Part shown: positions 24,408-64,000 of the stretch, one piece after another
Position numbering within the stretch: the first letter of the stretch is position 1
Layout of the letters: each line of letters starts with the position of its first letter
NCBI GenBank assembly: GCA_013115135.1
Contig: JABANP010000047.1
Coordinates: 145,781-209,780 of the forward strand
Length of the DNA: 64,000 bases
Direction of reading: 5' to 3'
From: Perkinsus olseni
Lineage: Eukaryota; Perkinsozoa; Perkinsida; Perkinsidae
Notes under the pieces: generated by a model
The model's database searches: none
What the model saw: only the letters and a program-made list of their open reading frames with translations
What the model was told of the DNA's origin: nothing
Program-made: the position numbers and the translations under genes

Positions 24408-24592
24408 TGTGTGAAGAAGAAGAGGAAAGCCCTGGAGAGCTGATCTGACTATGGACAACAGTGAAGGGCGTATGGGCTTGCATTGGCGGCCCTGCCGCGA
24501 GGCCACGGCTACAGTGACCTATTGAATAGGATATCGCGTCTCCTACTACGCGAGTGAGCAATCATCCGGGCGCGCGCTACTTACGCTGTCCC
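24408..24592. promoter_or_regulatory. Divergent intergenic region (putative bidirectional promoter)
   Basis: Only about 185 bp separate the start of copy 5 (minus) from the first ATG of the DHHC gene (plus). By position it must serve as 5' flank of both. I recognise no motif. Confidence 0.35.
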
Positions 24593-27107
24593 ATGGCCGC
24601 GGCGGCCGTGGCAGAAGACAACGCAGGACCGCCTGAGTGGTCATTAGTACAGGATGCGGCATCTACCAGCAGTACCTCGCTGGATAAAGGCACCATTCAT
24701 ATTGCTGTGGCAGGTAGATCATCATGGACGAGAGTCGACCTAAAGATACTTCTCTCAGTTGCCCAATCGGATCGGCTACCGCGTGGGAAGGTGTTTTGAT
24801 TTATCGATCAAGTTGATGGGACCAGCATTGGTACGGAGTATCTTTCTTCTCCGTCAATGACCAGCTCGACCTCCTTAGATACTACTAGCGTTCTCCCTTT
24901 ACGGTTTTTGTACCTGCACCTACTTTGCCGTTATCATCCACTACTACAACACGGCATGGGTCTGGCTCGGTGCCACTGCCGTTGGCCTCTTCCTTCTCAT
25001 CAATATGATATACAATTATGTCCAGGTAGGGTCGTTTTTGCAATTTTTTCATCAGAATCCACACTGCATCTCAGGCGGCCCGAACCTCCCCTGGAGTGCC
25101 ACCTGTGTGTGACCCAGAGGCCCCAGCCGGCACCGATGGGGGTAGGAGTACCACACCAAGCGTTCATCATCATCGCTGTCTTCTCAGATCCTGAGGAGTT
25201 CGCCCTGCAGAACGCACTACAGCTCCGGTTGTCCAAGTACGGCAAAGGCTATCAAGGATTCGCTGATAGTGACAGCTCGGGTGAGTCTGGTGGTGAATGA
25301 ACAATACTGAGATAGTGGTATCAGAGGCAACTCAATCGATAGACATTGCGATTCGTTCAAAGCACTGGTGGATTCTCTCTGGTCGGGTCGTGTTCGTAGA
25401 AGCCCGGATGGATCACTCGGATACGAAGCTTTCCGAGGAGGCCGATCACTGGTGTATTTATCAGTTGGAGAGTCGACTCCCTACGTGCGGGTTTTAGATG
25501 ACGAAGAGAATGCCAGCAGCATGAAGCCCTCTTCGCCGACCCTCTTCCCGCTCTGTCGGAAGTGCAACAGGTGGTCAGAGGGGATGGAGTTGGTTCAAAA
25601 GTGACAGGTGTTCGGAGTGAGCAGTTTGCTCGTCATAAAGTAATCGCTGAACGTTGATGAAACTTTAGCGGCAGGTGGAGGATAAAGAGTGGCAGGATTT
25701 GGAATATGTACGGTAGCCCTCCTCGACTAGACGGAACAATGACCACTCCGAAAGATGAAGCTTCTCTCATCCAAACTGTAGTCGTGGATCCCTAGTATTC
25801 CTGCGATGAAAGTTGATCGGCAGGGGAGTATTTCTACGGCGCGTCGGAACCATAAACTTTTCTCACGTGCAGGTACAAGCCACCCCGAGCGCATCATTGT
25901 TCAGTATGTAAAGTATGTGTATTGAAGATGGACCATCACTGCCCTTGGCTTAACAATTGTGTCGGGCATCGGAACTACAAGTAGTAGCTCCCTTATCAAA
26001 GCAGCGCTAATTCGAGCCGACGGGTCGACTACTTCCGCTGCGAAGGGGTGGCGCTCCGATTTTCGCGGACAATTAGTCACGAAAAAATACAACATGCAAT
26101 AATGAGGCCACCATGCCGCGCGGCGCGTGGGCGGTGGAACGAACGAAGCAGTGGTGGAGTACCTAGTGCTGTATCGAATCGTCACGTGGCATGGTGGCAT
26201 CATTTTCGAATGTTGCAGACTGTATCTACCAAACGGTTTTGCAGGGGAAAAATTCCCCTTCAGTACCGGCCGTATTCGGCTAATTTCCCAAAGGTTTGGG
26301 TGAAAAAATAACATTTTTCATGGATGAATAACCGTTGGTTAGATGATTAGAATACCGCCTGTGTAATGCGGCTTAACGCTAGGTGCTGTAGTATTATTGT
26401 CCTGTCATCCACCTCTCCGTTGAAAGATACTTTTACCTCTTCCTGCTGTACCTCGAGCTGTGCTGCCTCTTCGTGGTCCTCTTATTTTTCGAACCCTTCT
26501 CTACGGCGATGTTCCCAACGCGAGGATCCCCTCGATGGAACATCTCCATTGGCTATAAGCAGGTAATAATTTCGTGGCGCGCGACACAGTGTGACTTTCC
26601 CTATTGCTCATCTCTTTCCAGGCGGTGGCGATGTCCTTTGTTATTTGCTTGGCCATTGCCATTGCCGTGGGCATTCTTCTCGGCTTCCACACGTATCTAG
26701 TCCTTACGAACCAGACGACGATAGACTTCCAGTCCAACGTCCGGGAGGCCAGGCTAGCGAAGCAACAGGGAAGGCTCTTCATGTAATACGGGTGCTGCCA
26801 CTCTGGGTATTATCATGTCGCAATGCTCCGCTCAGCAACCCCTTCGATCTGGGACGGGCGAGGAATTTTCATCAAGTTTTTGGAGACTACAGTTTCTGGT
26901 CATTCCGGTGGATGGTACCATGGGCCAACTCGAAGGTGAGCAGTTGTCGCGCGCCACGAAATTCCAATGAGCTGCTATCCTCAGCCGGCACCTAATTGTG
27001 ATGGATACTTGTGGCCCACCATCGGCACGAGAGGGGCCCCTCGAGGCAGCGGAGGTCATCGGAGGACCGTCTATCGGCACGCCGGCGGTCAGCAGCCAGC
27101 TGAGTGA
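24593..27107 (+). CDS. DHHC-type protein S-palmitoyltransferase
   Basis: A multi-exon gene encoding a zDHHC acyltransferase, which moves palmitate from acyl-CoA to cysteines of membrane proteins. Visible parts in order: a [15 protein letters not shown] segment and two N-terminal helices (about 24790-25026); the cysteine-rich domain with [12 protein letters not shown], then the catalytic DHHC in [13 protein letters not shown] (25870-25975); further helices ([13 protein letters not shown], then [14 protein letters not shown]); the TTxE-like LTNQTTID; and the [14 protein letters not shown] motif. It ends at 27105-27107. Introns include 24714-24758 (45 nt), 24831-24878 (48), a 447-nt one near 25979-26425, and about 26933-26984 (around 50). 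The first exon does not join in phase unambiguously, so the N-terminus is tentative. Neighbouring Met-Gly proteins are plausible but unproven substrates. Confidence 0.88.
24714..24758 (+). repeat. Intronic repeat, family I (45-nt intron)
   Basis: The intron ends in GTCGACCTAAAGATACTT..CTCAG. This closely matches the 3' halves of the introns at 49834-49895 and 48820-48877, which belong to unrelated genes. Confidence 0.65.
24831..24878 (+). repeat. Intronic repeat, family I, rearranged or inverted (48-nt intron)
   Basis: GGAGTATCTTTCTTCTCC near the 5' end and GCTCGACC near the 3' end: the reverse-complement order of the family I motifs. Confidence 0.45.
26091..26214. repeat. Imperfect inverted repeat inside a long DHHC intron
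   Basis: Arms 26091-26117 and 26188-26214 are complementary at about 23 of 27 positions (core GGCATGGTGGC), separated by about 70 nt of GC-rich sequence. This intron is about ten times longer than most in the window, so the hairpin may be an inserted non-autonomous element. Confidence 0.5.
26568..26585 (+). repeat. Intronic repeat, family II (sense)
   Basis: AATTTCGTGGCGCGCGAC begins 5 nt into the intron GTAATAATTTCG... of the DHHC gene (intron about 26563-26622). Confidence 0.65.
26946..26963 (-). repeat. Intronic repeat, family II (antisense)
   Basis: The exact reverse complement of the 26568 copy, inside the roughly 50-nt intron GTGAGCAGTTGTCGCGC... of the same DHHC gene. The two copies lie under 400 nt apart in opposite orientation. 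Confidence 0.65.
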
Positions 27108-27223
27108 AGCTTTGTCGTTGATTATGCATATAACATTAATAATGATACAGTTTTCTTCCATCACGCATTGTTAAGTTCTCTATTCAATTGCAGTCGATCG
27201 TAGTAGTGTTAGTTGTCATTATC

Positions 27224-45914: not shown

Positions 45915-48900
45915 CTAGTCCGCAAACGTCCCCCTCACAGCCACCTCCTTGGCAATGACACCGTTCAACAAGGCCCTAGCATCGGAACCCCTTTCGGAGA
46001 CCTTCCTGCGAGGCATCACCAGAGCCCTCCCGACGTCCTCGTCCATACACCAATACTCAGCCAAAGCTTCCTTAGCAGACCCGAGATCAGACAGCAGTAC
46101 TGCATTCACCATCCTGCTAAGCCTTCCGAGGTCGCAATACTCACTGTAAGCCTGTCTGTCGTGGCATACTCCGCCACAGGGGTCCTCATCCGACCTCCAG
46201 CTCAACAGGACCTCTTCCACCTCTCTCGCCCTCTGATTGGCAGAATCTATCCGTGTGGCCGCCTGAAGCAGCTCTCCCTCGCACTGCTGGTCATTGGCGG
46301 TGACCCCAACTTGAAGGGGGGTCAGTTTGATGCTGTGCAGCGTCGCCGGATCCAGAATATCCTTCTCAGTGCGGACACCGTCGTTCTCCTCCCGCCTCAC
46401 CCCCACCGCAGCCCCTCTAGGGACTACGTCAAGGAAGGCACATGAGCCCAAGGGTGGCTGTAGGGTATTGAATCTGGTGAGAGTTGTGGACGGGTACGCT
46501 TGCTCGAATGAAGACTGCGCCTCTTCAACCTCCTCGCAGCCTTCATCACTATCCTCAGGAGCAAGACCAAACCATGAGGGAATATGTTCTGGCAGGACCT
46601 GGGCGAAGGACCGACTAGCCGCCATCTTAAAGGCTCGAAGAGGATCAGTCCACCAATCTGTATGGCTGTCCATAGGGTCATCTCCCAGTGGCTGATGGTG
46701 TACAAAAGCATCGACATCACAGTCGGTCTGCCATGGCCGAGGCAAGGCCCTGACCGGGGAGTAGAGGCCGAGAAAGAGGTTCACAGCGTGCTGCTTCTCC
46801 TGGTCCGAAACACTATTAGCGTAATGGCGATGGAGGGAGATGAGCAGCTCCCTGCTAGGGGCCGATAAGGCAACCCAATCCGTGTCACCACTACCACGCG
46901 GCATCACCCGTCTATGACCACCCAGCGAGCCGGAGGAGCTAGCATGCCCTTCAAGAGATTGCCCGGCACCCATAATGTTAGCATATTTCTTATGGGCCTC
47001 ACTACCAGCGTACTGCCATGCCAACTGATCCCCCATCTCCTCATACATCCTCGTGAGTTCTCTCATCACCATCAGTGGTGGCGGCTCCCCGGCCTCTGGG
47101 ACACCGATCAAGCCTTGCTCCCTCAGCTGGGAGCACAAGGCTGCGCAGCCAATATGATACTGGAAGACGTTGGTTCGATCCAGGCAGTCCACACAGCTCG
47201 ACCGGGCCACGCCACTTTGGAATCTTTTGACCTCACCATTGGCATGAATGTGAAGCCAACCCGTCGAGAGTGCCAGCCACTCGGACAGGATACCCAAATG
47301 GTCCACCAGATCCTGGCCGCCCCTCCTCAACCTAGCCTGGGCCACCAGATGCTTACTATACGCCTTCAGGTCGAACACGACATACCGTATCTTGACCGCT
47401 GAGGGCAGGTCAGCGTTGAGAGCATTGACCATCTTCTGATAATGCGAACCCAGCAGAAATTCTTGTTCGTTCTCTACCGTGGACAACGACCTTTGCCCTT
47501 CTTCCGATGGCTTCTCCTCCTCTCCTTCTTCTACTACTTCACCCTCTGCATGGCGCATCAAATTTATCACCAAAACCGGTGCGCCATACCGCCCCAACAG
47601 CCCCGAGAAATGCCGCCTCGACGCCGTGTTGTTCCTGTCTGTTCTCTGGAACCGAATCGGTGGTTTCGGCTTCACCAGACTCAGCTGACTCTGGTCCTGC
47701 ATCCAGAATACCGGAGCGCTGCCTCGAACCTGGACGAAGCTGGAGAAGGGCTGACGACCCATCCCACCAGTGGACAGGTCGATGAGTATCTGCTCTGTCT
47801 CCACCTCATTGGCAGCATCACCGTCGGCGTTGATGCCGCGCTTTCTGTACCGAGTCCCCGCGTAGAAGCGAGATCTTCGGCTGATGAGAATGATGCTGAG
47901 CACTCGGGAGAGGGCCGATATTTCGCGCGCCGCGAAATACCCGTAGATGATCGGTACATACCACTGCCGTACTCGCTGGTCGGGGTTGTCACGAAAACCT
48001 TCGCTGTGCGTCCAGTTCCACACAAAACGGGACAGCAATGATTCCGCTAAGTTGCTCTGCGCACTTTGTGAGATATCGTATGTATGGCAGTAGTAGTAGC
48101 CCCTAGAGGCCTGCATGTCCTGTATCAAATCGATGAGGCGACGCTCGTCCTTGGCGAGCTGTCGTTGATGTAAGATGGACCCGCCGCTCCCGGACGTACT
48201 ACTGCCAACCACCGCCGCCGCTGCCGCCGACTGTTGCTGCTGCTGGTCAGAGCTGCTGGCTGCCTTGAGTGGCAATAAGACTGTCTTTTCCGTACTCCAT
48301 ACCTAGGGAAGGATACCAGAGCCACTGCCTCTAGTAGCGGAGAGAATATCGAAGTTGCGAAGCTTGATACGACCAGTCTACCACATTCACGACTCTAACG
48401 AACAGAAACCGGAGAATCAGATGGTAGACACACTCGTATGAGGTTCTTGAGGTATGCTAGGCTCTTTGGAAATTCTAGTTTTAAAACCTAGGATTTCAGC
48501 CGCGCTTAAACTGCCTTTCAAACTAGCTGATCGGTTTTACACCTAGAACAGACAGGTTCCCAGAACTCGGTGAACGACGAGTCCTAAAATTTTTCATCCA
48601 TCACCGCGGAATTTTCTGCAGACAAGATTTGGAGAGAATACGACCAATGGCGCGAGGATTAAGGCGTTGGAGCAGGCGCCGTGAATGGCGGAATGCTTTA
48701 CTGGGCATACTGATCATTACCTGATGACAGCCTCGACCACCGATCCATCCGACAGGTCGAGCCTCTGATACCACTACCAGATAGTATCCTTGGAGAAGCT
48801 GGATCAACCCAACCACCGCCTGAAGGTATCTTAGGTCGGAGCGTGTAAGATACAGAACAGGTGAGAATGAATGTCACCTGTATATCACTAGCAAGTCGCT

Positions 48901-49225
48901 TGTCTGAAGAGTCCCTTATATCCCTATCAGTAGCATATATCAACGGCCTGGAGTTAACATGCCCAGCCTGTCTCGTGATACACAGATACTCCGCCTCCTC
49001 CAAACCCTGCCCGCGCCTGAATAGCGAGGGTGATAGCCATCATCAGCCCGGTAGTGGTTATTACCTTCTAAGGCCTCTTACATAGACCAAGTCATTAGAC
49101 TGGTAAACATCCATCTTGTCGAAGTCACAAAAGCCTTCCCTGCCTCTCACTGGCCGCAATGGATGGGACTTCCTCGTCATATTAACATCATCACTGATAC
49201 CCCTCTGTGCGAATCTTAGGTCCAT
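45915..49225 (-). CDS. FIG4-like SAC-domain phosphoinositide phosphatase
   Basis: The N-terminal exons lie at 49225-48720 (DVYQSNDLVYVRGL, EEAEYLCITRQ, LIQLLQGYYLVVVSEARPVG, the SAC N-lobe). An intron of about 415 nt follows, then a long exon from about 48302 (VWSTEKTVLLPL) to the stop at 45915. Key blocks: YYYCHTYDISQSAQSNL, VPIIYG, LISRRSRFYAGTRYRKRG, NEVETEQI, KPPIRFQRTD, RYGAPVLVINLMR, the CX5R catalytic loop CVDCLDRT, then LHRHYANSVSD and NLFLGLY...WWTDP, which are specific to FIG4 rather than SAC1. FIG4 removes the 5-phosphate of PI(3,5)P2 on endolysosomes in a complex with Fab1/Vac14. The start ATG 49225 is tentative. Poly-Gln and poly-Ala insert near 48240. One in-frame 45-nt segment looks like an intron (see findings). 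Confidence 0.87.
47920..47938 (-). repeat. Family II-like palindrome in FIG4 coding DNA
   Basis: ATTTCGCG-CGC-CGCGAAAT on the plus strand. Read on the minus strand it encodes Phe-Ala-Ala-Arg-Glu. It begins directly after GT and lies within a 45-nt GT...CTCAG segment. Confidence 0.5.
48820..48877 (-). repeat. Intronic repeat, family I (58-nt FIG4 intron)
   Basis: It contains ACCTGTTCTGTATCTT and CCGACCTAAGATACC..TTCAG. Both halves align with the intron at 49834-49895 of the neighbouring gene. Confidence 0.65.
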
Positions 49226-49664
49226 CCGTGCACTACTCAAAATATCATGATTATTATTGGTATGATACACCCCTCATTAGACAGTAAAATACACTTTCCA
49301 AGACGTACACACTACATCGACCTCCACCTTTTCTCCGGGAATCTCAGCTTCACCAACGCAGTTCGCATGATACGCCATGCTTGCTCTGCTTTTCGAACCT
49401 GCTACCATAACTTTCCTTTCGATTCCTACACGCACACAACGCCTGTCTCCAACCTCAAGCTTCAGCAGCCAGACCCTCGCCGCTGCTGCTCTTGTATTTT
49501 CTCATCAAACTAATACCAAACCATGCACACTACAGCGGCCATTATAAATCTCCCGCGACTATCAGCAGCCACTATCAACGACTCATGCTCTCCATCACCA
49601 TCATGAGCATCTCTCAGACTCAACCACCCAAGGCTACCAGAAACGTCATCATTGCGCAGGCATG
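49226..49664. other. Intergenic region 5' of the FIG4-like gene
   Basis: No gene supported between the FIG4-like start and the stop of the next minus-strand gene. Confidence 0.35.
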
Positions 49665-51200
49665 CTAGTAGGGACGAGGACCCTTCCTGTTGCCGTACTT
49701 CGGCTTCATTGTTGGTTTGCCGATCACTTGGTCAGACATCTCTCGTTCGAAGTCTTCAACCTCCCACTGCTCAGGCTTGTCAGAGTCCGGCTTGTTCCCT
49801 TCGAAAGGGTTACCGACAAAAGGATTAGACTTCCTGAAGGGGGAAAAGTATCAATAGGTCGACCGTGGAAGATACAAAACAGGTCAAGTTCTTACCCAAC
49901 CCCATACATCTCCCTCAGAGTAGACAATGAAGGTATCGATTCCTAAGCCACAAACCTCTGCTCTCACTGTCTCCTCACACGATGACTACTTCATTATCTT
50001 CCAATAGCTCCTTCAATGACGCCGCTACTTTACTCTTCCTCAGCGGTGCCGCAGAGTACTTAGATTCTGAGTGAAGAGAATCTTGCCTCTCTAAGGCCAG
50101 CCGCGAGAGACTCATGCTTGCTCCTAGTACTACCACCCATTCGTCAGTCAGTAAGCGCTCACACCCGTCAAGGGAAATGGGCGTCTCTGATAATGGTATA
50201 TTTACGCCATCACGCTCTATCCATAGCCTGCTTCTCACCGCGCTTCCATACATCACCACGAACCCCAGAAGATTGCTTAACCTATTACCATCAAAAGCGA
50301 TCGCCTCGGCCATCTGCGTAGCGCCCTCCACTGCGTCCTCCCCCAGTAAGACCTCATCATCTTCTTCGAGTAAATCAGCCTCATCATCAGCATCAAACTC
50401 GTCGTCAGCATCATGGATGGGGTCTAGCATCTCTGCAGCCTCGAGAGCTGCCGTGTGCCGCCTCTGCTGCCTCGGGGACATAGTCGATTCGGTACCGCCC
50501 CACCGGCGATACTTCGAAGGGCGCAATTTGCCCACCAGAGCTGCGCGCTCTTGCTCGACCTACATGCGAAAAAGAGAAATTTTCGCGGGAGAATTTTAAA
50601 CGGAATTTACACGAAAAATATCGAAGACATTGAAACAAGAGAATTCTCCCGATAAAATGAGAAAATTTAAGTAGAAAAACTTCGAGTAAATTTCAGCGGG
50701 AAATGTTGGAAATTGTCAGTTAAACTTTCAACTGTGAAAGAGAAAATTTCTTCCCGAACTCTCCACAATTTTTCAAGATTTTCATTACCTCCAGCCGCCT
50801 GGGCATCTTCATCAAAGTAGGTATCTCCTCCTCCCTCCCAGCATCCCTATACTCCTGCTTCAACTTACCAAACCGAAAACTGCGGACTCGCGATAGAATC
50901 CTCCGCAAATGCAGTTCCTGATAGGACCACAGTGAAACTCGCCCTCCTCCTCGAGAGCACCAACCCTCAGCTCAGCCTCCCGCTGCCTGGAGTAAGCAAG
51001 CCCGTTCGGATAAAGGGGATTGGGCCTTCTGTTGCTGCCGAATGCTGGCATTACGGCGGAGTTCCAGGCCATAGCCATCTCGATCTGGAGAGAACCTCAG
51101 GACCGCTGTTTCCAGCACTTGACCACTGCGGCTACTTTCTGTTGCTCTTCGAGCTTCTTCCGCCTCTCTCGGAACTCTTCTTCGGCCCTGAAACATGTGC
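49665..51200 (-). CDS. Multi-exon coiled-coil protein of unknown function
   Basis: Exons on the minus strand: a charged helix (FRERRKKLEEQQKVAAVVKC, near 51150), a linker (AFGSNRRPNPLYPNGLAY), LHLRRILSRVRSFRFGKLKQ, then KLRPSKYRRWGGTES and a very acidic stretch. Next is a compact block (RLSNLLGFVVMYGS...RLLTDEWVVVLGASMSL). Introns of about 38 and 62 nt (49834-49895) lead to LREMYGVGKSNPFVGNPFEG and a basic Lys/Pro-rich end, with a stop at 49665-49667. Phases agree across the last two introns. The 5' end is open and junctions between 50700 and 51080 are approximate. I do not recognise the family. Confidence 0.55.
49834..49895 (-). repeat. Intronic repeat, family I (62-nt intron)
   Basis: It contains CCTGTTTTGTATCTTCCA and GTCGACCTATTGATAC, the best-preserved copy of the family. 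The copy at 56974 in exportin-7 is its reverse complement. Confidence 0.7.
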
Positions 51201-52551
51201 CAACTGAAGTGACGTGATCTCAATCATGATGACGGAGAGGGCACGGTGGGGGTCGACGACGGTATGAACCCCTTACAAGTGGAAAAATAGACGAGTGGAC
51301 GAACTGAATTTGAAACAGTATCGGTTGATAAGACGCCTGCGGAGTCGAAGCGATTCAAATTCTCCGGAGAAGCGCTGTGCGAAAAACCTCGGAAACGACT
51401 ACGTCCAATTTCGCCGACATTTCAAAGCAACTAAGATAGGCTTGTTGCTGTTGGTAGCAGCATCGCCAACTCGACGAGTTAATACATCGCAACGATGAGT
51501 TACGGATGTTATGGTATTACTATCGACGAGGGAAAAAATCGAACCGCCAACTATTACTGTTTGAAGGCCCTCCTCCGGTCCATACCATTATTCATGAGCT
51601 GCAGCTGTCGTGCTACGAACTGCATCACAGGGTGGTCATCTCTGATAAGAAAGTATCTTCAACCCTCCCCAGTTAGCGCCGATGAACCTGTAAGTATCGT
51701 TGCCCCTGGTCCACTGATTGCCCTCGACGAAGCAGTCCTGGAAGCGCAGGTCAGGGTACTTCCGCAGGAGGAACTTCACCAATTTTGGGTACGGATTTTT
51801 AACCTTGCGCGTCTGAGGGGAGAAGAGAAAATGATGCCGAGCAAATGCCGGTAAAGGGAGAGGTCGTCGAAGAGAGGCCCCCAGTCATTGCGAAACTCAG
51901 AATCGATTCTAAAATGCGGTTCCAAAATCATGAGTTACATAATTGGCGTATCGAGCAGCCGCAGGATGGGGATATTTTGCAATGTACGCTCCCGGCTAAG
52001 TCGAAACTTCAATCGACCCATTCTGTGCGTCAGACGTTTCTGGAACGGATTCTTACACGTAAAGCGCGTTTCCGGAATAGATTAAAAACTTCAAAATTGG
52101 TTTATCGAACATCCCCAATTTCTCTGCCACTGCAGGCATCGAAATCTCGGAATGGAAGGGTGTTGGTGATAGCGTTAAGCCATACTGTTTCGAAATTATC
52201 TCCTCAAAACATGCGGGTGTCACGATGCCACCTTCTCCGAGGTTCTCCTTTCAGATACTACTAAATATAGAAGCATTTCAGCCTACTTGAAAATTGATAT
52301 TAAGATTCTCCATCGGAGGCACGCGTTCAGCACTTTGCATCCACGGGGGTCGTTGGGTGAGCCTGAGGAGGGGAAGATGTGGTATCTTCCGAGTAGGTCG
52401 GCCTACATCCCGGCTTCGGCTAGTCGGCGTATCCTACCGACAATGTCGAGCTTGTAACCACGATAGAAGTTGGTACCATAAGGATGGATATGGCCATAAG
52501 TCATTGGAAGGAAGAAGAATACAGACTACTACAGAAAATCATTTACGTCAG
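51201..52551. other. About 1.35 kb without a supported gene
   Basis: Plus-strand ORFs of up to 139 codons show no domain. A family I-like GTATCTTCCGAGTAGGTCGG occurs near 52383. The 5' exon of the coiled-coil gene may lie here. Confidence 0.4.
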
Positions 52552-52629
52552 AGGCGTTGCCGGGGTTCGAACCTGGGTTGAAGGATATTGCAGTGATGGT
52601 TGAGTGCTCTACCGTTCGGCCAAAACAGC
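52552..52629 (-). tRNA. tRNA-like sequence (possible pseudogene or tRNA-derived element)
   Basis: On the minus strand there are an intact A box TGGCCGAACGGTAGAGCA and an intact B box GGTTCGAACCC at about the right spacing, with a 4/5 T stem. The acceptor stem pairs at only about 5 of 7 positions, the D stem has mismatches, and I cannot place a convincing anticodon stem. It is therefore more likely a tRNA pseudogene or tRNA-derived repeat than a working tRNA. Confidence 0.5.
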
Positions 52630-52846
52630 CGAAGCGACTCTCGTGAATCGATCGGCCGCTGACCATGAAACTCAAAGGAGAGATGACTCGGTACCTTCGA
52701 CCATCATCCTGTGTATCAGCATTCCCGTGCCTCCACCTCTTGCCCCTACTACTGCCACTCTCCCGTCCTTATCAATAGTAGCCCCTCGTTCTCAGTTGGC
52801 CGTCCTCCTCTTGTGTGTGTTGTGCATCCCCCTACTCGGCCTACTA

Positions 52847-55800
52847 ATGGACGCGGCTTCCTTGGCTCAATTTGAAAGGCTCTGTACGGAGTTCTACAAC
52901 CCTCCCAATGAGCAGGCTCAAAGGCATGCTCATGAGGTCCTCACGCCCCTACTCAACGGCATTGACTCGGTACCACAATTACAGTAATACATTACTGCCG
53001 GGTCGACCCTAGTCAAAGACGGATTTTTAGATACGTCCTGGCGAACTCCTCCAACCAGCAAGCGCTCGTTTTTGCCTCTACCGCTTTGACTAAGGTCGCC
53101 ACTGCCAACTGGACCGCTGTTACTGAGCAGCAAAGGGAGGATATGAAGGTGATAACAACAACAGTCATCACCTCTAGGGTTATCACTATGGCCTTTAATT
53201 TTTGGAAAACATCCGAGTTTCGCTCGTCCAACATGCTGAGGACCTCGGTTGACCTCAGCCTGAGGTCAACCGCGTCAGGAGTTCGATGAAGGCTCCACGT
53301 CTATTATCCTTTACTTCGTCTACATGTCGATTCTCGCTCTTGTCTGTCCTATGCGGTCGAAGGCGTTCCTTCGCTCACGACTCTCCCTCATCATGTGTAT
53401 TGTTCGTGCGATGCGGAAGGGTACTCTAGTCCTGGAGTATCTCAGGGCTCGTGCAATTTGAGCGTCTTTGGTTCCTCTTCAAATGAATACGATATTGACA
53501 TGTACTTTATACTTTGGCATAAACTCGGTTTGAATCGACTTCACAGCAGTGGTCGATATTTTACTCCGTCCCCTTGGGATATCCCTGTGTTCTTTTTCAG
53601 AATTTCATGCTGAATTATCTCTTCCAGAATTGCGAGGCTCTCCAAAACAGTGCTCCGTAAGTGCTCTCTGTATCACGCGCATGCGTACATTATTTTCTAT
53701 CCGAAGGTACGCGGTGTCCTTCCTGGTTCGCTTTCTCTGTCGTATTGTGAAGCTCAGCTGGCTTGAGGGACCTCAACATCAGACTATTGTCAGCGATGTA
53801 ATAATTTTCATGAATTGGGCAAAAGTTGGTATGCAAAGGTTCCACGGGCAGGTACAAAAGTTCCTCTCAGCATCTACTCGCCATTGGATACTTGGTCTGG
53901 ACATCTATGTTCAGCTAACTGCGGATATCCAGCCCACCGTCGGGCCGGGGATGTCCCGATTTAGACGTACAAAGGGAGCCGTTACTGGAAAATTATCGAC
54001 AAGTGTTTTGACAAAAATTGCATCAGTTTTTACAACTATTAGCATGAGGAAAAATTAATCACCAGCGATCAACTTTCTATTCAGCAGTATGCATATTCTT
54101 TTCTCGATAAAATTCAGAATTTCCCATGCGAAGCAGAATGATTGTTGGCAAGGAGTTATCTTGTGGAAGAAGTTGTTTTCCTTGTCAGGCACGGCACTCT
54201 CATTTCGGGACATAGCGCTTCCCCAGATCTTCACAACGGCAGTGGATATCCTGACTCAGATGTATGAGGGGAAACTGCGGATTGATGATAAAATGGATGA
54301 ATTCAAATTGGTGAAGAAAGTAATGAGGAGGGCGAAGAGAATTGGGAGAAGTATGGTTTGTGTGCCAGGTGCTGCAGCTGGCTTATAACTGTTTGAGCTT
54401 TGATTTCATGGGTGAGTGTTGTCGGGAAATAATACTCCGACGCAATACCACATTTCCCCGAACTTGCGCATCTTCGGGTAGCGGGTCCCGCTGGGCGATC
54501 TACGCAGAGTTATGCGAGAATTAGCTGGATGTTATCGAGTGTCCGCGTAGTATAACAAGATGATGGCTCAGCACCGAGCGTGACAGGGGTGCAGTGTTTG
54601 GGTATTATTATCAACGATAGTATTTAGAGTACCATAAATTGAGTAAACATATTCATTATATGGTATTATATGTTATGAATAGATTACTGGCCGATAGTAT
54701 CTCCATAGTACAGGTACTATCCCTGATGAAACTTCTGAGGACCAGACCACAGTGATGGTGCCGCATAACTGGACGGTGTTGAAGGATAATATCATACCGA
54801 AGTTGTAGGAAGGCGGCTGATGAGATTGGACGAGGAACCGTCGGGCGTACTGTCGTTGTTGGTAGATTCTTCCAGTTGTACGACAGCAGCTGCAAGAATG
54901 GTTGGAAGGATTGCGCGATGTAGTATTGGTGGGGGTAGTCATCTAGGTATTTCGAGGCGCGTGGCGATTGATTTTTCTTCTATATCACAATCTGATACAG
55001 ATTTCGAAATCATACTGCCATACAGCCTAGGACAATTGATGATCGAATGTATTAGGCTGTGAGAGGCACAAGCAGGCGTAGCTGGAAGTAGTCACGGAGT
55101 GGAGTTCGGGAATGAGAGTTACCAACAGGGACGTATCTTTTCTCGACCCAGTATGGGTATTGCTTTGTCGTTCCACAGTTTGGCAGATCGACTTAGTGAT
55201 GTTGTTTCCGTTGTTTTGAAAAGTGTATGGGTTGGTCGTCTCTGGTTCAATGGCCTCTCTGCACGTGTGTTGTGACGAGGGTGTTATGATCGTCGCATGC
55301 TTCTTTTGTTGGTGTTGTTCAGATACTGTCTTCAGTGTTTGGTACTTCTTAGTTCGCTAAGACGATCATTCTTTCAAAATGAAGAGGAAAGTAGTAACTC
55401 AGGGGCACTAACGGTTGATCTGAAATCGATCGGCAGGGCGCACGCTACGTGCATGAATATCACTATGCTTGATTTCAGAAACAGCACTGTTACAGAGTAT
55501 GATGGAAGGCACTGCTCATTTGATATCTAATAAAGTTGGATTGTCGGATCCGCAATGTCTTCATGAGACGTGTCGGCTGATCGGAAGAATCAATACTAGT
55601 AGCCAATTCAAAGAGCTCAAGCAGGTGTGGCATGGGTCAATCTAAGATACGCCCTGAAGATATGTCCTAGGTACCAAGCTTCGAGATGTGGTTGGAGCAG
55701 GTCTATGGCTTCACCATTGACGCAATAAAGAATTGGCAGGTGGGGGTCTCTTGGTGAGGACTCGGGGGAAATTTGGTATGAGTTTTGGCTTTAGATACTC

Positions 55801-58800
55801 CCGAACAGTAAGCATTATCTGTTGCAATTCTGGGCGCAGCTTGTGATGCCTATCATGAATGACAAGGATAAAACACCGGGGTTCCATACTAAATTAGAGG
55901 ACTACATCTACACCATTACTGTGAGGTAGTAATAACAAGTACCACACCAACCAGTAATTATCCCTGAGACATATCTTACGGAACGGCTAGGGATGTCTTT
56001 TAAAGGAATGGGAATATCTTTTTAAGGACTGGGAATATCTTCTTTAAGGACTGGGAATATCTTTTTTAAGGACTGGGAATATTTTCTTTAAGGACTGGGA
56101 ATATCTTTTTTAAGGACTGGGAATATCTTTTTTAAGGACTGGGAATATCTTTTTAAGGACTGGGAATATTTTCTTAAAGGACGGGGGATTTCGATTTAAC
56201 CTGTACATGAAGCATTACACTAGTTAGGAGTATGCTGTATTCACTTCCTCTGTACTCAGCTCTAGTCACAAAGCGTTGTTTGTCTTGCATTCGACAATGT
56301 AGATTTATTGGGCAAGATAAAGATATTCTCCTTCAGTTACATAGACTCGAGGCTGTTCCTGGCGGACATGGCAGCACGGGGCGAGGACTCGATGGATGAT
56401 GAGGGCTTTGAAGATGCTCTACAGGATGAAGTGTTGAGTAATATGTGCATGCGTGCTAGTACCACACCTTCCGCAAATTGCCTCTTTATTTAGGAGGGGA
56501 GCAATTGGATGTCATAGCCCAATTGGCGAGGTTGAATTATCAGAAGACAGCACAGCATGTAGTGCTCGGGAAGGGGGTTGGGGAAAGCTGTTGACTTATA
56601 TTTCCGAGAAAAGTTTGGTAGCGTAGACGATCGTGGGCCAGAGGTTGAACCTGGCAAGATACGAGTGAGGTTGAAGTCAGCGTATCTTGATATTACCGTT
56701 TGGTGACTCTGGTCCACGTGGAACTCGCAGGGGTTTAGAACTCGGGCTTGAGAAGCGAGCTTGCTTGTCCAGCATTATAGTCTGATTGCAGGCGTCGCGC
56801 GCGATTGAGGGTCTTCTGGTGGAGAGGAGCATGTTCTTGATATGCTATGAAACGTATCTTCGGCCAGGTCTTGGAATTGTTCGGAGGTTGCACATCGGAA
56901 GCTAACGTGAATGAACACAAACTAGCATGGTTGGTATATATTATGGGAGCACTTGTTGGTGGAAATACTGGAAGTGAGTATCAAAAGTTGAAGCATGGAA
57001 GATACAAAATGGGTTGGATTTTAGGCACAAGCAGTATGAGGGCTCAACAGCAACAGCAACCAAGTGGCTCTCAACCTCTGCATGTAGGAATAACAGCAAA
57101 GTCCCTCGTGGTATTCTTTCTTGCCACCGACTCTTATAATTTCTCGAAGACGAATCCTGCAGGTTATCAACGGTGAAATTGCTGGCCGGGTGTTCTCGCT
57201 GATGAACCAAACGGACGCTAATACGAACCTGCCACCGGAATCTAAGGACCCAACGAATTTAGAAACCCTTGAACTTTCGTAAGGGAATCTTTCCCGTGCG
57301 TGGAGTATCTTAGGTTGACTCTTGGCAGATATCTTTATTTCATGGAACAGTTCAGGAAGGTTTATATTGGGGAGCATGCGAGGCAGCTGTCAGCTAGTAA
57401 TAATATCTGGCGTGGAGGGCAAGTTGTGTCGTGGGGCTTCTGGACTGGTGATTCCTAAATCGTACTTTGAGAATGTTATCATCACTTGAAGAAGGGATTC
57501 ACTTTATGGCGACGGCCTCGGCGATTATCCTCGCCCTCAGTAATCCTTAATATTGGAATATTATCCGGTTTCGCGGGAGTCTTCTGAGGGGAATGCCACA
57601 GCTCTTCACACGGATGGCGAGAACACGGGACGCTTCTTGGACCAGGGAACGCTCTTCTCATCCATCCGAGCAGTTTTCTCTTGAAAATTTCTATACTTGA
57701 GTTCCAGCAAATTCGATAATTCCCGTACTCCTCAAAAATAAGTCTCTTAATAGTTTCCCTATTTAGAGTTCTTTGTAGTTGGTCATTTCCGTATGTGTGC
57801 CAGTAGGCTACTCGTACCGTCGCTTAGGTGCACCCCCGTCTGCCTTGTCACGTGGAGACGTTTCGATGGCCTCGTCTGAGAATCCGAGTAGAGTGGTGCA
57901 GGAGAGAGTTTGTAAGTCGAGGAATCTGAGGTTGATGCTTGATTGATACGAATAAGGTACGGTGCTTGGTTTGAAGGATGAAGATGCTATTCTTGGAATA
58001 TTGATCAAGAAGATCGTTACCAACCTGCAGCATCGATACACACTGGAGGCCGTCCTCAAGAGTAATAATTTCGTGGCGCACGAGAAAAGGTCATTTCAAA
58101 ATGAATGCAGAAAATTGTAATCTCCGTGGATTTCCTTTTTTTGCTGCGGAGTTTTGGATTTTTGTCCGCAAAAAAGTAGAATTTTTGACCAGTTTTTTCT
58201 TTTCAGGGACCCTTGCGTATTTCTATGAGTTGGCAGCTGGTGTGAACATCGTGCATTCCGTTGACAAGATGAGTCCACATCTCATCATCAGTGGGAAGCT
58301 GTTGCTCAAGAATGATACTGTAATAGCCGGAGGGTCGGGGGAACGCTCACTTCGGCACCGCCGTCCTTGGGGAGAGGCTCACCGGTGTCTTGTAGTAGTT
58401 TGCAAGATGCCGGGGAGCATAGATCGCTAGCAAATACTGAGGGAGCTTCATTGTTGGCAATAGTTGAATACCGTTACACGGGTTGCGGGCATTTCTCTTC
58501 TGTGCTTGGCTGGAGGCTTCATGGTATCTTGTAGTACTTGAATAATGGCGGGAAGTGTTTTGGAGACATTTGTAGTTCTCGTGGGGTTCCCGTGTCCTGT
58601 GTTATCGTCCTGCTGAGGGCTCTGTAGTGCAAAAATGCATTTTGGGCTTTCGTGTATTGGTCACTTCAAGGAGTGTCTTCCGAATGCTTTTCGTTTTTTT
58701 TGATGTTGTGTAACCGTTCAGGTTCGTCATTTGATGGCAAATCATGCCAGCTCTACTTTGGGATTCCTTCATGCTGGCCCAAAATACGGACGATATCGTA

Positions 58801-60991
58801 ACGATTATAGGAGGGTAAAGAATTCCTCTTGCGGACTTCTTCCCTCAGGTACGCAATACTACGCGACTCTTGGGAAGCTGCTGTTCATGGAGTGTCGAGA
58901 TGGCAGCACCAGCACGACTGCATTGGAGACTTTCAACACTTTCATGATGCCCCAATATCAGGTGGGAAAAATTTTGGAAAAATATCTGGAAAATGGGAAA
59001 ATTTTTGGTGCAGGTTTTGGAGCAGCTTTGGCAAGCTGCTAACACCGGGGACGGATCGGCACTCCGCAGCGAGCAGCTGAGGCTGCCGCTGATTGGACTC
59101 TGCCGAGATTTGAGAGGAATCTGCCAGGCTTGTGTGTCACACGATATGTAATAATGGGCGATTTATTGACGAATCAGGAATTTTTGGCGCTTGTTTAATC
59201 GTTTGGAAGGTACACGATCTTGTTTAACTGGTTGGTGGACAACCCGAAGCAGCCGCAGAACTGCAAGATAACCGTCTTCTCGGCAGCACTCAACTTCTAC
59301 TGGGATGATCCAGAAGTCACAACTCCCCTCCTGAAATTTGTAAGCCGCGGGTTCGATACCTGGTATTGACATTGGATTTTTTTCCCTCGAGAGTGTTAGG
59401 TATCTTGCAATCTTGCAATTTCTCAACGTCGTGGCTTGTTCTCAGGTGGCTGAGTTCGTATATAACAAGGCGCAGCGTATCAACTTCGACCAGAACTCCC
59501 CCAATGGTATCCTCCTCTTCAGAGAGGCATCTAAGATACTGGTAGCATACAGTCAGAGGATGCTGCAACGTGAACAGAGTCAAGTACTATTGCAAGGGGG
59601 TGGCAGTGGTCACCTGGGTGCGTTCCTTGACCTCGATTCCGAGCGGGTCGTCATAGATCATGAATTCGGCTTCCCTCGACTATGGAAGGTCGAACTCGCT
59701 GAGTAGGTTGTTTTTTGGAAAGAGATATGGAACTTTGAATCTTCGATTCTTTTGCTTGGGATTTGGCGACCTTTGTCCGTGTGTTAAACGGACGATTCTC
59801 GCGTGATGTGGTATGTTGGATGGGGTGTAGTGCTTGTAAGGGAGTATCTTTGGCGAGGTTGACCTCTTTGGTTTCAGCCGGTGTACAAAGATATTTATCG
59901 TGAGAAGTACAAGGGCATCGGATGTGTGTTGGAGCTCTTCAGCAACGCGCTTCACGGCAACTACACAAACTTTGGTGTCTTTGAACTGTAATATCGAGGG
60001 CGGGGTTCGAACTATGGGCCTTCGGGATGTCAGCAAGGGTTGTTATCGTTCTGAGCTATTCGAGCGGTTGCAGGTATAATGACAATTCGTTGTCGATGTC
60101 ACTCTCGTTGGCATTGAAGTTATGCATGTCAATTCCGATAGCGGATCTGATGAGCTACTTGAAGTGTCTCAAACCGTAAGCCGCGAATTCTGTTAATTTT
60201 CGGCAACTTTTTTCTTTGTAGGTTCTTCATGTTCTTGGAGTTGGCCACGAGGAATCATGCGAAGTTAGTTTGCGAAGTTGCCGAGTCCGCGGAGCATCTA
60301 GGTAACCTTAATCGATCACTGGGGCGAGCGCTATTTGCTTTTGTCAATATCGTCGTGTTCAGCTGGCCTGATTCGGGCGTTGGAGGAAGGACTCACGTCG
60401 TTTGATTCGAGCGTTTGCATGCAGTGCTGCGCCAGCATTGACAACCTCTGCACATTCTTCTACGATATTGCTCACACTGGAGTGGGGTCTTCAGTTGGAG
60501 GAGGTAACTGTTATGAAACGGTTGATCGATTTGTAATTGTTATTTTTATTGCTAGGTACGGCTGCTACTGCTGAGGATGTGGCGCGGGTGACTCAAGGGT
60601 TGTTGGTACCTGGCGGACCAGTCGACGCGGAACTGCGAAGGGTGTTAAATTTGATGCTCCAATTGATAATGGCGGGAGAGTTCAATTCGACCTGGAGTAT
60701 ATCGAGACCGATATTGGCGTTGATTCTAATGTGAGGGGGTGCACGATTTGGGAGAGATTTGGTATGCGAAATTTGTGCATAGGTACAAAGACACGTATAC
60801 ACAAGCTCAGGAGTTGATAGTGAGGCAGCAGCCCACAGAAGATCGCCAACAGTAAGCGGCCGATCTGTCGATTCTTGCGCTCTTCCAGTTCCTCAACGCA
60901 GGTACGTTGGCAAGTGCTTCTCTGAGCTGATGGTGGGTGTGACGGATAGCCTTCAAACGAAAAATCGCGATCACTTCACGCGGAATATGTA
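52847..60991 (+). CDS. Exportin-7 (RanBP16)-like nuclear transport receptor
   Basis: ATG 52847 (LAQFERLCTEFYNPP) starts an importin-beta-type N-terminus. More than 20 exons follow along 8 kb and match exportin-7 in order: YVLANSSNQQALVFAS; FLCRIVKLSW (near 53740); SFRDIALPQIF (54212); LQLAYNCLSFDFMG (54376); FKELKQ and YGFTIDAIKNWQ (55610-55740); HYLLQFWAQLV; HKLAWLVYIMGALVGG (56920); YFMEQFRKVYIGEHA; FDQNSPNGILLFREASKILVAY (59480); NFGVFELY; QTKNRDHFTRN. Exportin-7 is a broad-specificity Ran-dependent carrier that moves cargo in both directions. Many introns are 46-60 nt, but several are 85-410 nt and hold repeats. ATG-TAA at 60989-60991 may be the stop or a GTAAGT donor, so a last exon could be missing. 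Confidence 0.88.
53247..53271. repeat. Perfect 12+1+12 palindrome in an exportin-7 intron
   Basis: GGTTGACCTCAG, a single central C, then the exact reverse complement. It sits in intronic DNA between the second and third coding exons, close to an outer GTGATAAC/GTTATCAC pair. Confidence 0.85.
55625..55670 (+). repeat. Intronic repeat, family I (46-nt exportin-7 intron)
   Basis: It contains GGTCAATCTAAGATACGCCC, matching the GTCGACCTAAAGATAC core with a few changes. Sense orientation. Confidence 0.5.
55992..56187 (+). repeat. 20-22-bp minisatellite in an exportin-7 intron
   Basis: Nine head-to-tail units of type GAATATCTTTTTTAAGGACT plus GG, varying mainly in T-run length, inside an intron of about 410 nt. 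Confidence 0.9.
56974..57020 (-). repeat. Intronic repeat, family I (antisense to exportin-7)
   Basis: Read on the minus strand: TTTTGTATCTTCCATGCTTC and TTTTGATACTCAC. This is the same order as the 49834 copy but inverted relative to its host gene; the intron itself starts GTGAGTATC. Confidence 0.6.
57279..57328 (+). repeat. Intronic repeat, family I (antisense; 50-nt exportin-7 intron)
   Basis: It contains GGAGTATCTTAGGTTGAC, the reverse complement of the GTCGACCTAAAGATAC core with two changes. Confidence 0.6.
58067..58080 (+). repeat. Intronic repeat, family II (sense)
   Basis: The exportin-7 intron at about 58062-58207 begins GTAATAATTTCGTGGCGC, identical over 18 nt to the start of the DHHC intron at 26563. 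Confidence 0.7.
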
Positions 60992-61568
60992 AGTGTTGGC
61001 ATCCGGGAGGTCCCTGGTTCGAATCTTGGCGGGGATGCTTTTCACGGAAGGTACCACTTTGCCCAGGCAGTGCGGTCTACTTCCTAGAAGTACTATAAAG
61101 CTGATAATGACGACGTTACTGTTAAAAACAACAACTGGACTACGCTGACTGTTGATGCGAGTTTCCTTTCAATGTCGTGATAGAGTTGGGTTCAGTGCTA
61201 CAAGAATTAAGCTTCGGAGATTCGTCCAATTAAGTAGTGTTGCCCCGTGGTTACATATCGTTAATGACTACCAACTGGGTGCGAAGAGCTGAAGTGCATT
61301 CAGTTGATCACCATCTCCGCAGGAACGCAGCTGTGAGTGGGAACTGGCATCTCTCCTAACTCCACTCGTCACTGACGAGTCGTCAGTCCTTCTGCACAAG
61401 CGTGTTGGAATGGCAGGGATGGATCGTTTAAGCCTTGATAGACGCTAGTTATGGAGGGGCGTAGAGTCCGCGCCCCATACCGTGTCTTCCGATATTTCTG
61501 GTCCACTCAAACACTCTCAACCCCGCAGCACTGTCTCTATAAACATCTCGGGAACATGTCCAAAATCT
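60992..61568. other. Convergent intergenic region
   Basis: It lies between the 3' ends of exportin-7 (plus) and a secreted-protein gene (minus). It contains GGTTCGAATCTT just after the exportin-7 end and a 17-nt palindrome at 61371-61387. No gene seen. Confidence 0.4.
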
Positions 61569-62429
61569 TCATATACTCTTGAGTTTCCCGACCTCTCCAG
61601 CTAGCTGCAATGCCTTGGCCATCTTGTCATTGAGGAATCTCTTCATCCAATCCCATCCAGCCTGGTATCCTTCAGGAGGGGTCCTCTCTAGCAGATCGAT
61701 CATGAGCGTGCACGTCACGTCATCCTTGGGATCCGTAGATACCTTCATGATCATGTCGGTCAAGTTGTCGGACAAGGGGAAAATGTTGGCAACCCTGCTC
61801 GGCATGTCGATCAAATTTGCTTTGATCTCCCCTTCACGGTCCGGGTCTTGGAAAAGGATAGTAGTCCATTTGCTGGGACGTATACTGAGGCTCGATAAAA
61901 GTGTAAATTATCAGGAGGTGATGACCATGAAAATTACCTAGCGCTGAAGTAAAGCTGTAGTGGGTCAGTCACCCTCCAGGAGACGGTCTGAATATCGTCC
62001 TCCCAAGACACGGTAATATCACCGTCTACATAGCGACCAACACACCTTTTTGGCTGAGCTTCGATCTGCGACAGAACGAAGCTGTTATAGCCTTAGGGGA
62101 ATGCCATGTGTGGCAACTGTTGCACCTTCCGTGAGAAGCTCATTAACTTGGACAACTTATTTGTCTGGCTTGATAGTATCAAGTTGATACTAGGCCGGTC
62201 AGCTTGGATACTTGCTTGCTTAGCTTAGTCACTTCACTGGCCAAGTTAGCCACTTGAACGTACACGTTCATGCCCTTCGGTTCCTGTCCATGCGGATTGG
62301 TATAATCACCCCTCACCTGAGGACGGACTGTTGCTGAGTTACTCTCACCTTTGGGTTAGCCTGCAGGGCCAAGGTCATTGCTGTAAGAGTCAGCACGAAT
62401 GATAATACATGGATGATGAGGGTGGTCAT
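61569..62429 (-). CDS. Secreted protein, paralogue A
   Basis: ATG 62429 opens a typical signal peptide (MTTLIIHVLSFVLTLTAMTL). Further exons encode a heptad-like linker (LASEVTKLSKQVSKLT), then CVGRYVDGDITVSWEDD...WRVTDPLQLYFSA. After an intron of about 53 nt come RPSKWTTILFQDPDREGEIK, NIFPLSDNLTDMIMK and a helical C-terminus (WMKRFLNDKMAKALQLAGEV). The whole plan, including exon order, matches paralogue B 660 bp away. Exon junctions near 62175 are not fully resolved because of a 17-nt palindrome. No known domain; the signal peptide and coiled segment suggest a secreted multimeric protein, possibly host-directed if the organism is a parasite (inference). Confidence 0.65.
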
Positions 62430-63087
62430 AATCTCACGAGGGATGATATCACTGATTATCCGAGGGTTCGGACCTGACACTGTGTATTCTGGCGGGGTCG
62501 AATGACTCTCGCGTGGCAACGCTAGCAAGGGAGCAGCAAGGACGATTCGACATCTTCCATCATCTACCGATTGCGCGTCTCCTAACTCGCCATCTGGTGG
62601 GCCTCAAATATTGCAAGAGTCTCTTGAATGATTTGGCACACAACAGTTGGTTTTTCAATCATGCCTGAGGATGGATTCTTCACTTTTCTGAGCCAGAATT
62701 CCTGCTAGCCGAATTGAAGCTCGCATGAATTCCCGACGTGTGGTGAGAGAAGTCATCGGTTGGAGGCCCTTCGATCCTCAAGAAGCTGTGGACGGTCACC
62801 TGGTAACTATGAAATCGCCTTGGATACTCTGATAGAAGGAGACTGCGAAAGGTTGACATCGACAGCAGTCTCGTCTCCAAATAAGTACGGGGCCTCCGGA
62901 GCCGAATGAGCCGCACAGGGCTCAGTAGTGTCCCCCCCCCCAGGAAAAAGAGCACCGTAGATGTCTTGGGATAGGCCCACACTTCCGTGTCCGATACTCT
63001 TTCCAATTAGTGATATACAACACCACATCATAATCTTAGATAAACATGAACATCACAGCGTCATCAAGTTATCATGATCAATACACT
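62430..63087. other. Spacer between the secreted-protein paralogues
   Basis: No gene is supported; it holds a C10 run near 62933 and short ORFs only. Confidence 0.4.
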
Positions 63088-63951: not shown

Positions 63952-64000
63952 TGCGCAGGGAGGGGAGAAAAACTACTGATGGACCGGCCGTTGTGAGCCA

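What the first reader, a model, noticed from the sequence alone, without database searches (positions are those of the whole stretch)
48820..57328. Family I introner-like element shared by introns of three unrelated genes, in both orientations
Seen directly: introns at 49834-49895 (coiled-coil gene), 48820-48877 (FIG4-like), 24714-24758 (DHHC) and 55625-55670, 56974 and 57279-57328 (exportin-7) share a two-part core, TTTTGTATCTTCCA and GTCGACCTAAAGATAC, often making up most of a 45-62-nt intron. The 56974 and 57279 copies are inverted relative to transcription. Non-homologous introns normally share only splice sites and the branch point, so a dispersed, orientation-independent core points to mobile intron-generating elements (introners), known in several algae and dinoflagellates. 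That this is such a family is inference.
Basis: partly seen in the sequence, partly recalled or inferred. Interest (0 to 1): 0.9.

Follow-up and report, generated by a model that had tools for sequence, protein, structure and literature searches.

The report
Repeated sequence inside Perkinsus introns
In the shellfish parasite Perkinsus olseni, small introns of unrelated genes share a short repeated sequence in both orientations, which suggests that old mobile-like elements built some of its introns, although movement itself was not shown.

Summary
The genome is Perkinsus olseni. Introns 48820-48877, 55625-55670, 56974-57024 and 57279-57328 come out exactly when P. olseni FIG4 and exportin-7 proteins are spliced onto the window. 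The shared core is a 39-nt asymmetric element, TGACCTNNTTYGTATCTTGCAYGGTYGACCTNAAGATAC. Copies 48826, 49848 and 56978 are full-length, 24732 is a weak half-copy, 55625 and 57279 hold fragments. Its 28-nt part occurs 130 times genome-wide (up to 3 mismatches) against 0 reversed controls. In sequence not chosen by the core, 6 of 7 profile hits lie in introns, 18% of that sequence. In 9 of 12 single-copy introns, removing the core leaves less than the shortest of 34 verified introns, 45 nt. Four further intron-shared families exist.

Against a classical introner: no target-site duplication, 0 of 8 copies absent from the other haplotype, divergent copies, copies outside introns. GTATCTT is also unusually constant, so a functional motif is a live rival. 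Best reading: a degenerate introner-like family; mobility not shown.

The parts
48820..48877 (-). 58-nt intron of the FIG4 (SAC-domain phosphatase) gene; family I core at 48826-48862, sense to the gene
   Evidence: Spliced alignment of P0001; profile hit E=7e-8
49834..49895 (-). 62-nt intron (reading-frame evidence only) of a minus-strand gene; family I core at 49848-49886, sense
   Evidence: Profile hit E=9e-10; BLAST E=2e-9 over 43 nt to the predicted intron L052:8177-8246; the gene finder predicts a longer intron, 49727-49895
56974..57024 (+). 51-nt exportin-7 intron; family I core at 56978-57014, antisense to the gene
   Evidence: Spliced alignment of P0121; profile hit E=9e-7
55625..55670 (+). 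46-nt exportin-7 intron with a family I fragment (CATGGGTCAATCTAAGATAC)
   Evidence: Spliced alignment; pairwise BLAST only
57279..57328 (+). 50-nt exportin-7 intron with an inverted family I fragment (GTATCTTAGGTTGAC)
   Evidence: Spliced alignment; pairwise BLAST only
56559..56867 (+). 309-nt exportin-7 intron with a weak family I copy at 56644-56670 and further GTATCTT sites
   Evidence: Spliced alignment; profile E=0.15; BLAST to L008 and L047 introns
   Evidence: Gene finder and profile hit E=1.6e-6; no homology check
24714..24758 (+). putative 45-nt intron of a DHHC-like gene with the half-element GAGTCGACCTAAAGATACT at 24732-24750
   Evidence: Weak profile hit E=0.12; reading frames; called intergenic by the gene finder
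52847..61084 (+). exportin-7 gene, 31 introns in the homology model (end computed as if ungapped)
   Evidence: P0121 spliced alignment, 99.4% of whole codons; end
45915..49225 (-). FIG4 gene, 3 introns in the homology model (low end from the ORF)
   Evidence: P0001 spliced alignment; ORF; Pfam Syja_N E=7e-59

Best explanation
The shared core is a 39-nt dispersed repeat ('family I') of the P. olseni genome that sits mainly in small spliceosomal introns and largely makes them up: an old, degenerate introner-like family. Inferred mechanism: copies of a short non-autonomous element inserted into genes in either orientation, and flanking or internal GT and AG dinucleotides served as splice sites, so that the insertion was spliced out as a new intron of about 50-70 nt. 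Later decay left the GTATCTT arm best preserved, perhaps because it helps splicing or binds a factor. Shown: the family, its copy number against controls, exact intron borders for the FIG4 and exportin-7 cases, intron preference, both orientations, and residual lengths mostly too short for a pre-existing intron. Inferred: insertion as the origin, the copying mechanism, and any role of GTATCTT. Not shown: mobility, or splicing in transcripts.
For: Exact introns. Copy number 130 against 0 controls for the 28-nt part, and 531 places against 1 for exact GTATCTTN{5,30}AAGATAC. Similarity between introns of unrelated genes up to 86% over 43 nt, E=2e-9. Intron preference: 6 of 7 profile hits with E below 0.5 in window plus C13:1-180000, or 3 of 4 once the three seed copies are set aside; introns are 18% of that sequence. 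Removing the 39-nt core from 12 single-copy introns leaves 12, 19, 23, 23, 31, 12, 33, 34, 37, 49, 61 and 85 nt (9 of 12 below 45); the shortest of 34 verified introns is 45 nt. Of these 12, two have homology-verified borders, two (49834-49895, L052:4394-4444) are my reading of the sequence, eight are gene-finder predictions. A CLN3-like gene has the element-bearing intron at residue 31/32 of the query, while two distant paralogs (44% and 27% identity) align across that junction without a break. Four other families behave likewise; over all five, 10 of 19 non-seed hits in that sequence are intronic. One predicted gene on contig C20 (L008) has profile hits with E of 1.3e-5 or better at six places, four labelled intron and two exon.
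Against: No target-site duplication: junction repeats average 1.9 nt in 12 element-bearing introns and 2.3 nt in 30 others. 0 of 8 copies compared are missing from the other haplotype at 5-8% divergence. The core does not end at fixed distances from the splice sites: 4-16 nt from the donor and 6-26 nt from the acceptor in the seven introns measured. Copies exist outside labelled introns: of 24 hits with E of 1.3e-4 or better, 15 are labelled intron, 2 exon, 7 intergenic (many of the loci were fetched because of the core). The bare heptamer is not intron-enriched in C13 (0.135 per kb in introns, 0.379 in exons, 0.225 between genes; in the window 1.03, 0.54 and 0.35). A fragment test without family models shows no overall excess of intron similarity. 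GTATCTT is more constant than neutral decay predicts. The profiles were seeded from intron copies.
Confidence: 0.55

Rival explanations
1. A functional sequence motif (GTATCTT/AAGATAC with AGGTYGA and GCATG boxes) bound by a DNA- or RNA-binding protein is kept by selection, and small introns are simply where it is tolerated. The similarity of introns would be convergence and constraint, not copying.
For: With simple repeats dropped and a trinucleotide model, AAGATAC is the most enriched 7-mer in the window (38 against 7.4 expected) and in window plus C13:1-180000 (82 against 29.5); most of its 21 one-mismatch neighbours stay near expectation, ATGATAC and AAGATTC being the largest exceptions in the window. 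Between haplotypes 5 of 39 sites are present in only one, 13.4 expected under neutral decay, P=0.002. In exportin-7/FIG4 introns 1 of 84 heptamer bases differs against 403 of 4852 others and 17 of 237 flanking bases. In 31 exact 28-nt pairs AGGTYGA sits at offset 0 (13) or 1 (14), elsewhere in 4, while the total stays 28. In ORF 22890-24518 the heptamer occurs 6 times in all three frames, 0.4 expected under synonymous shuffling, 0 of 200 shuffles as high.
Against: It does not explain about 40 nt of alignable sequence including spacers, nor four other intron families. The second arm is not kept: of 17 profile copies other than those that brought a locus in, 16 have GTATCTT and 2 have AAGATAC, so strict dyad geometry partly reflects searching for two exact arms. 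C13 alone shows a weaker excess (44 against 22, not among the 15 top 7-mers), and its 11 long ORFs show none: 0 against 0.84 expected. The neutral expectation assumes uniform divergence.
Confidence: 0.27
2. A short inverted-repeat transposon (MITE-like) inserted secondarily into introns that already existed.
For: The core is dispersed and partly palindromic with arms GTATCTT/AAGATAC; two copies occur in one predicted 146-nt and one predicted 202-nt intron.
Against: In 9 of 12 single-copy introns the remainder (12-37 nt) is shorter than any of 34 verified introns, so later deletion would have to be invoked each time.
Confidence: 0.12
3. Shared splicing signals (branch point, splice sites) or chance.
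For: TTGACC and TCGACC resemble branch points (recalled), and intron-labelled hits lean to one orientation: 13 sense against 2 antisense, not independent because one gene gives four.
Against: 130 against 0 and 531 against 1 genome-wide; antisense copies; at most 6 of 34 verified introns match the family.
Confidence: 0.03

Closest known systems
Introners of dinoflagellates (Roy et al. 2023, known here only through a passage of the review PMC11453091)
   Same: Several families of similar introns in one alveolate genome, attributed to mobile elements
   Different: There recent activity is reported in four of five species and 12,253 introns in Polarella; here copies are divergent, no polymorphism was seen in 8 compared, and no genome-wide intron set was available
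Introner elements of Amoebophrya (PMC7789003, passages seen)
   Same: Inverted repeats inside repeated introns of a myzozoan parasite
   Different: There 8-20 nt inverted repeats between the 5' and 3' ends of the intron, 3-5 nt direct repeats over the borders, mostly in non-canonical introns; here GT-AG introns, an internal 7-nt arm pair usually degenerate on one side, no direct repeats. My splicing models allowed GT-AG only
Introners as defined by Gozashti et al. 2022 (PMC9860276, passages seen)
   Same: Similar introns in unrelated genes, both orientations, similarity close to the splice borders
   Different: Border criterion met at both ends in 2 of 7 introns measured; no target-site duplication
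MITEs (recalled)
   Same: Short, dispersed, inverted repeat, no coding capacity
   Different: No terminal inverted repeat at the element ends was established and no transposase source was sought

Membership tests
Introner (PMC9860276 criteria) | At least four introns of unrelated genes with similar sequence (all-against-all BLAST, E 1e-5 or better) | tested here: met
   E of 2e-9, 1.4e-7, 1.2e-6 and others among introns of different loci (smaller database); most of those introns are gene-finder predictions
Introner (PMC9860276 criteria) | Similarity begins within 10 intronic nt of both splice borders | tested here: inconclusive
   Both ends in 2 of 7 introns measured (56974-57024, L052:4394-4444), one end only in five (coordinates compared by hand)
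Introner | Insertion in both orientations | tested here: met
   Asymmetric core: 13 sense, 2 antisense among intron-labelled hits with E of 1.3e-4 or better
Introner / cut-and-paste DNA element | Target-site duplications | tested here: not met
   Junction repeats 1.9 nt (n=12) against 2.3 nt (n=30); not obligatory, PMC9860276 reports them in 49 of 130 families
Introner / cut-and-paste DNA element | Terminal inverted repeats | tested here: inconclusive
   Arms GTATCTT/AAGATAC span 28 nt, but the element extends beyond one arm and both are exact in only 5 of 23 profile hits
Introner | Presence/absence polymorphism or intronless homologous site | tested here: inconclusive
   0 of 8 copies absent from the other haplotype; one intron absent from two distant paralogs, gain against loss unresolved; a tandem paralog of the L047 gene gave only a short, weak match
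Introner | Preference for introns | tested here: met
   6 of 7 hits, 3 of 4 non-seed, base rate 18%; labels partly from a home-made gene finder
Introner | Splicing seen in transcripts | not testable with these tools
   Only protein-level splicing models

The most novel reading that the evidence does not exclude
Many small introns of Perkinsus olseni were built by several short intron-generating repeat families, including one that looks like tRNA (SINE-like, both orientations), which would make Perkinsozoa an introner-shaped lineage and tRNA-like elements an intron source; the GTATCTT part of family I has since been kept by selection.
Probability: 0.35. Interest if true: 0.8.

Novelty: new member of a known kind. 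Interest (0 to 1): 0.6.

Why it matters
Where spliceosomal introns come from is a long-standing question. Introners are reported in dinoflagellates and in Amoebophrya; perkinsids are called the sister group of dinoflagellates in PMC11453091 (figure legend seen). A set of introner-like families there would push the phenomenon deeper in the alveolate tree, in a compact genome for which, as I recall, several strains and species are sequenced, so gain and loss could be dated. The tRNA-like family, if confirmed, would be an unusual intron source. My library search found one paper with both 'introner' and 'Perkinsus', on Amoebophrya; supplements, preprints and most subscription papers were not searchable, so prior reports cannot be excluded.

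Tried and rejected
RNA hairpin: folding 8 element introns gave z-scores of 0.52, -2.27, 0.43, 0.28, -1.29, -0.51, -1.07 and -1.83, so no consistent hairpin. Known RNA family: no Rfam match at gathering score in the window. Strand polarity over contig C1, suggested by the listing: dropped, because that listing omits minus-strand sites which one search shows. A Myb (SHAQKYF) factor as binder: one search found nothing, but its control genomes gave nothing either, so it says nothing. An early idea that the strict 28-nt spacing proves a protein dimer: weakened, because that set was chosen by requiring both exact arms; copies found by profile usually keep one arm. The heptamer as a general coding-sequence signal: rejected, the 11 C13 ORFs show none. 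The first gene finder missed exportin-7 and merged genes; the second labelled the verified intron 56974-57024 as exon, so labels are fallible; homology models replaced it for exportin-7 and FIG4. Fragment-level BLAST without family models shows no overall intron excess: cross-locus hits in 37 of 684 intron, 81 of 981 exon and 186 of 1864 intergenic fragments, though intron hits prefer intron partners, 11.5 intron-intron pairs against 0 after shuffling. One search listed ten single-copy introns; L037:153-228 and L052:7926-8049 had been left out and were added.

Other paper searches: search listings only.
Full report
What the organism is. The window is contig C412:145781-209780 of a 61.5-Mb assembly with 968 contigs. 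The 795-aa ORF 45915-48302(-) is 100% identical to a P. olseni hypothetical protein from a 209,780-bp contig, the length of C412, and the exportin-7 model matches 'Exportin 7 [Perkinsus olseni]'. The assembly holds allelic or near-allelic contigs: C382 aligns to window 47919-64000 at 94.7% and to 20378-27483 at 93.0% of ungapped columns, and C55 to C579 at 91.8%.

Checking the introns. I wrote a spliced protein-to-DNA alignment (GT-AG only). With P0121 as template exportin-7 starts at 52847 and has 31 introns, the last at 60989-61050; with P0001 FIG4 has three. The 49834-49895 and 24714-24758 introns rest on reading frames, not on homology.

What the shared core is. Starting from eight copies (three in the window, five in loci fetched because of the core), a profile converged on a 39-nt asymmetric element, TGACCTNNTTYGTATCTTGCAYGGTYGACCTNAAGATAC (the consensus line is my reading of the hits). 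In the window, good hits lie at 48826-48862, 49848-49886, 56978-57014 and 15333-15370; weak ones at 56644-56670 (E=0.15) and 24732-24750 (E=0.12). 55625 and 57279 hold fragments that pairwise BLAST sees.

Abundance. GTCGACCTAAAGATAC with up to 2 mismatches: 389 places against 31 for the reversed pattern. GTATCTTNCAYGGTCGACCTNAAGATAC with up to 3 mismatches: 130 against 0. Exact GTATCTTN{5,30}AAGATAC: 531 against 1. AAGATAC alone: 18,642 against 6,044. Of the first 50 exact pairs listed, 31 span 28 nt and 9 span 43 nt (lengths transcribed by hand); the first 50 pairs pointing apart show no such peak.

Are copies in introns? In sequence not chosen by the core (window plus C13:1-180000, 18.3% labelled intron), profile hits with E below 0.5 are 6 of 7 in introns, P=0.0002; without the three seed copies 3 of 4, P=0.02. 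Over the fetched loci searched, many chosen by the core, hits with E of 1.3e-4 or better are 15 intron, 2 exon, 7 intergenic by label (24 in all). One 'intergenic' one, L052:4398, looks to me like a 51-nt intron whose allele has a 1-nt deletion, so it is unlikely to be coding. The bare heptamer, by contrast, is denser in introns only in the window, not in C13. Element-bearing introns lie in genes for exportin-7, FIG4, a CLN3-like protein (Pfam E=3.4e-5, below the family's cut-off), an EF-hand protein and a predicted protein without Pfam match (L047).

Origin. Removing the 39-nt core from twelve single-copy introns leaves 12-37 nt in nine and 49, 61 and 85 nt in three, while the shortest of 34 verified introns is 45 nt; only two of the twelve have homology-verified borders. 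This argues that the element made the intron rather than entering an existing one. The CLN3-like gene has its element-bearing intron at query residue 31/32 on C55 and C579, and a close relative on C211 has a break of similar size there; two distant relatives, C15:30151-30363 (44%) and C32:79347-79700 (27%), align across it without a break. This fits gain in one branch, but loss in two is possible. Target-site duplications were not found. None of eight copies (48826, 49848, 56978, 56644, 24732 of the window; 4398, 8008, 8182 of L052) is missing from the other haplotype.

Not the only family. All-against-all BLAST of 486 introns (predicted, plus the 34 homology-verified ones) shows further sets shared between unrelated genes on both strands. 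Profiles for four of them hit, in window plus C13 and seeds included, introns in 5 of 7 (II), 5 of 10 (III, resembling the T-arm of tRNA), 3 of 4 (IV) and 3 of 3 (V) cases. Setting seeds aside, by hand from those listings, families I-V give 10 of 19, P=0.0008; family III alone gives 2 of 7. The families were defined by intron similarity, so some bias remains. The tRNA likeness is by eye: ARAGORN reports no tRNA and Rfam no match in the window. A broader fragment test without family models shows no overall intron excess, so the claim concerns these families, not introns in general.

The case for function. AAGATAC/GTATCTT is the most enriched 7-mer of the window once simple repeats are dropped (in one search, without that, CAG-type repeats rank higher). 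It is more constant between haplotypes than neutral decay predicts: 5 of 39 sites present in only one, 13.4 expected, P=0.002. Earlier versions of that test conditioned on one haplotype (27 of 28, 34 of 37) and overstate the effect. In the coding frame 22890-24518, whose third codon positions diverge most (12% against 3%), the heptamer occurs six times in all three frames; this is one locus. Profile copies keep GTATCTT (20 of 23) far better than AAGATAC (6 of 23); among the 17 not themselves chosen by the core it is 16 and 2, though the seeds shared GTATCTT. So whatever is constrained is one-sided, not a hairpin; folding agrees.

Verdict. The pattern is real and goes beyond shared splice signals. 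It fits an old introner-like family best, but features that would prove mobility were tested and not found, and a constrained motif remains a serious rival.

Papers. PMC7789003, PMC9860276 and PMC11453091: passages found by term. Other papers: search listings only. Branch-point, MITE and Myb remarks are recalled.

Noticed in passing
window 59988-60073, 60989-61050; L008 238-306, 672-724; C13:25580-25633 (L011): Introns that resemble the T-arm half of a tRNA (GGGATTCGAACC.GGGACCT), in both orientations and in several genes; in window plus C13 5 of 10 profile hits are intronic with seeds, 2 of 7 without. The likeness is by eye: ARAGORN and Rfam report nothing in the window.
   Followed up: partly
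window 26563-26597, 58062-58096, 14920-14940, 26943-26963: Second intron-shared family, TAATTTCGTGGCGCGCGACA, in two cases starting at the donor; also two exon-labelled hits at 21909 and 47918.
   Followed up: partly
window 60307-60337; L032 533-563 and 675-706; window 27701-27730, 59400-59428, 60871-60898: Two further intron-shared families (GCGCGCGCCCAGTTGATCGATTTG and CGTTGAGGAATTGCAAGATAGCAAGATTC), both orientations.
   Followed up: partly
L008 1-1816 (contig C20): One predicted gene with family I profile hits at 80, 374, 484, 831, 1358 and 1664 (E of 1.3e-5 or better), a weak one at 1500, and several tRNA-like stretches.
   Followed up: partly
window 21325-24518: AAGATAC/GTATCTT sites inside coding frames of a gene family without Pfam match, in all reading frames; 8 in two ORFs against 0.45 expected under synonymous shuffling.
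   Followed up: partly
window 55998-56186: 22-nt tandem array (8.7 copies; consensus contains AATATCT followed by T) inside an exportin-7 intron.
   Followed up: no
C12:5544-5835, C21:122120-122734, C26:68513-68679, C13:248627-248855: Tandem arrays containing AAGATAC with periods of about 26, 38, 40 and 37 nt (capped list).
   Followed up: no
window 53237-53277, 62170-62183, 63841-63854: Small indels between haplotypes whose extra sequence contains or is an inverted repeat (41, 14 and 14 nt).
   Followed up: no
C13:180000-200000 (L027, L028): A high-copy repeat fills 57-70% of this stretch.
   Followed up: no
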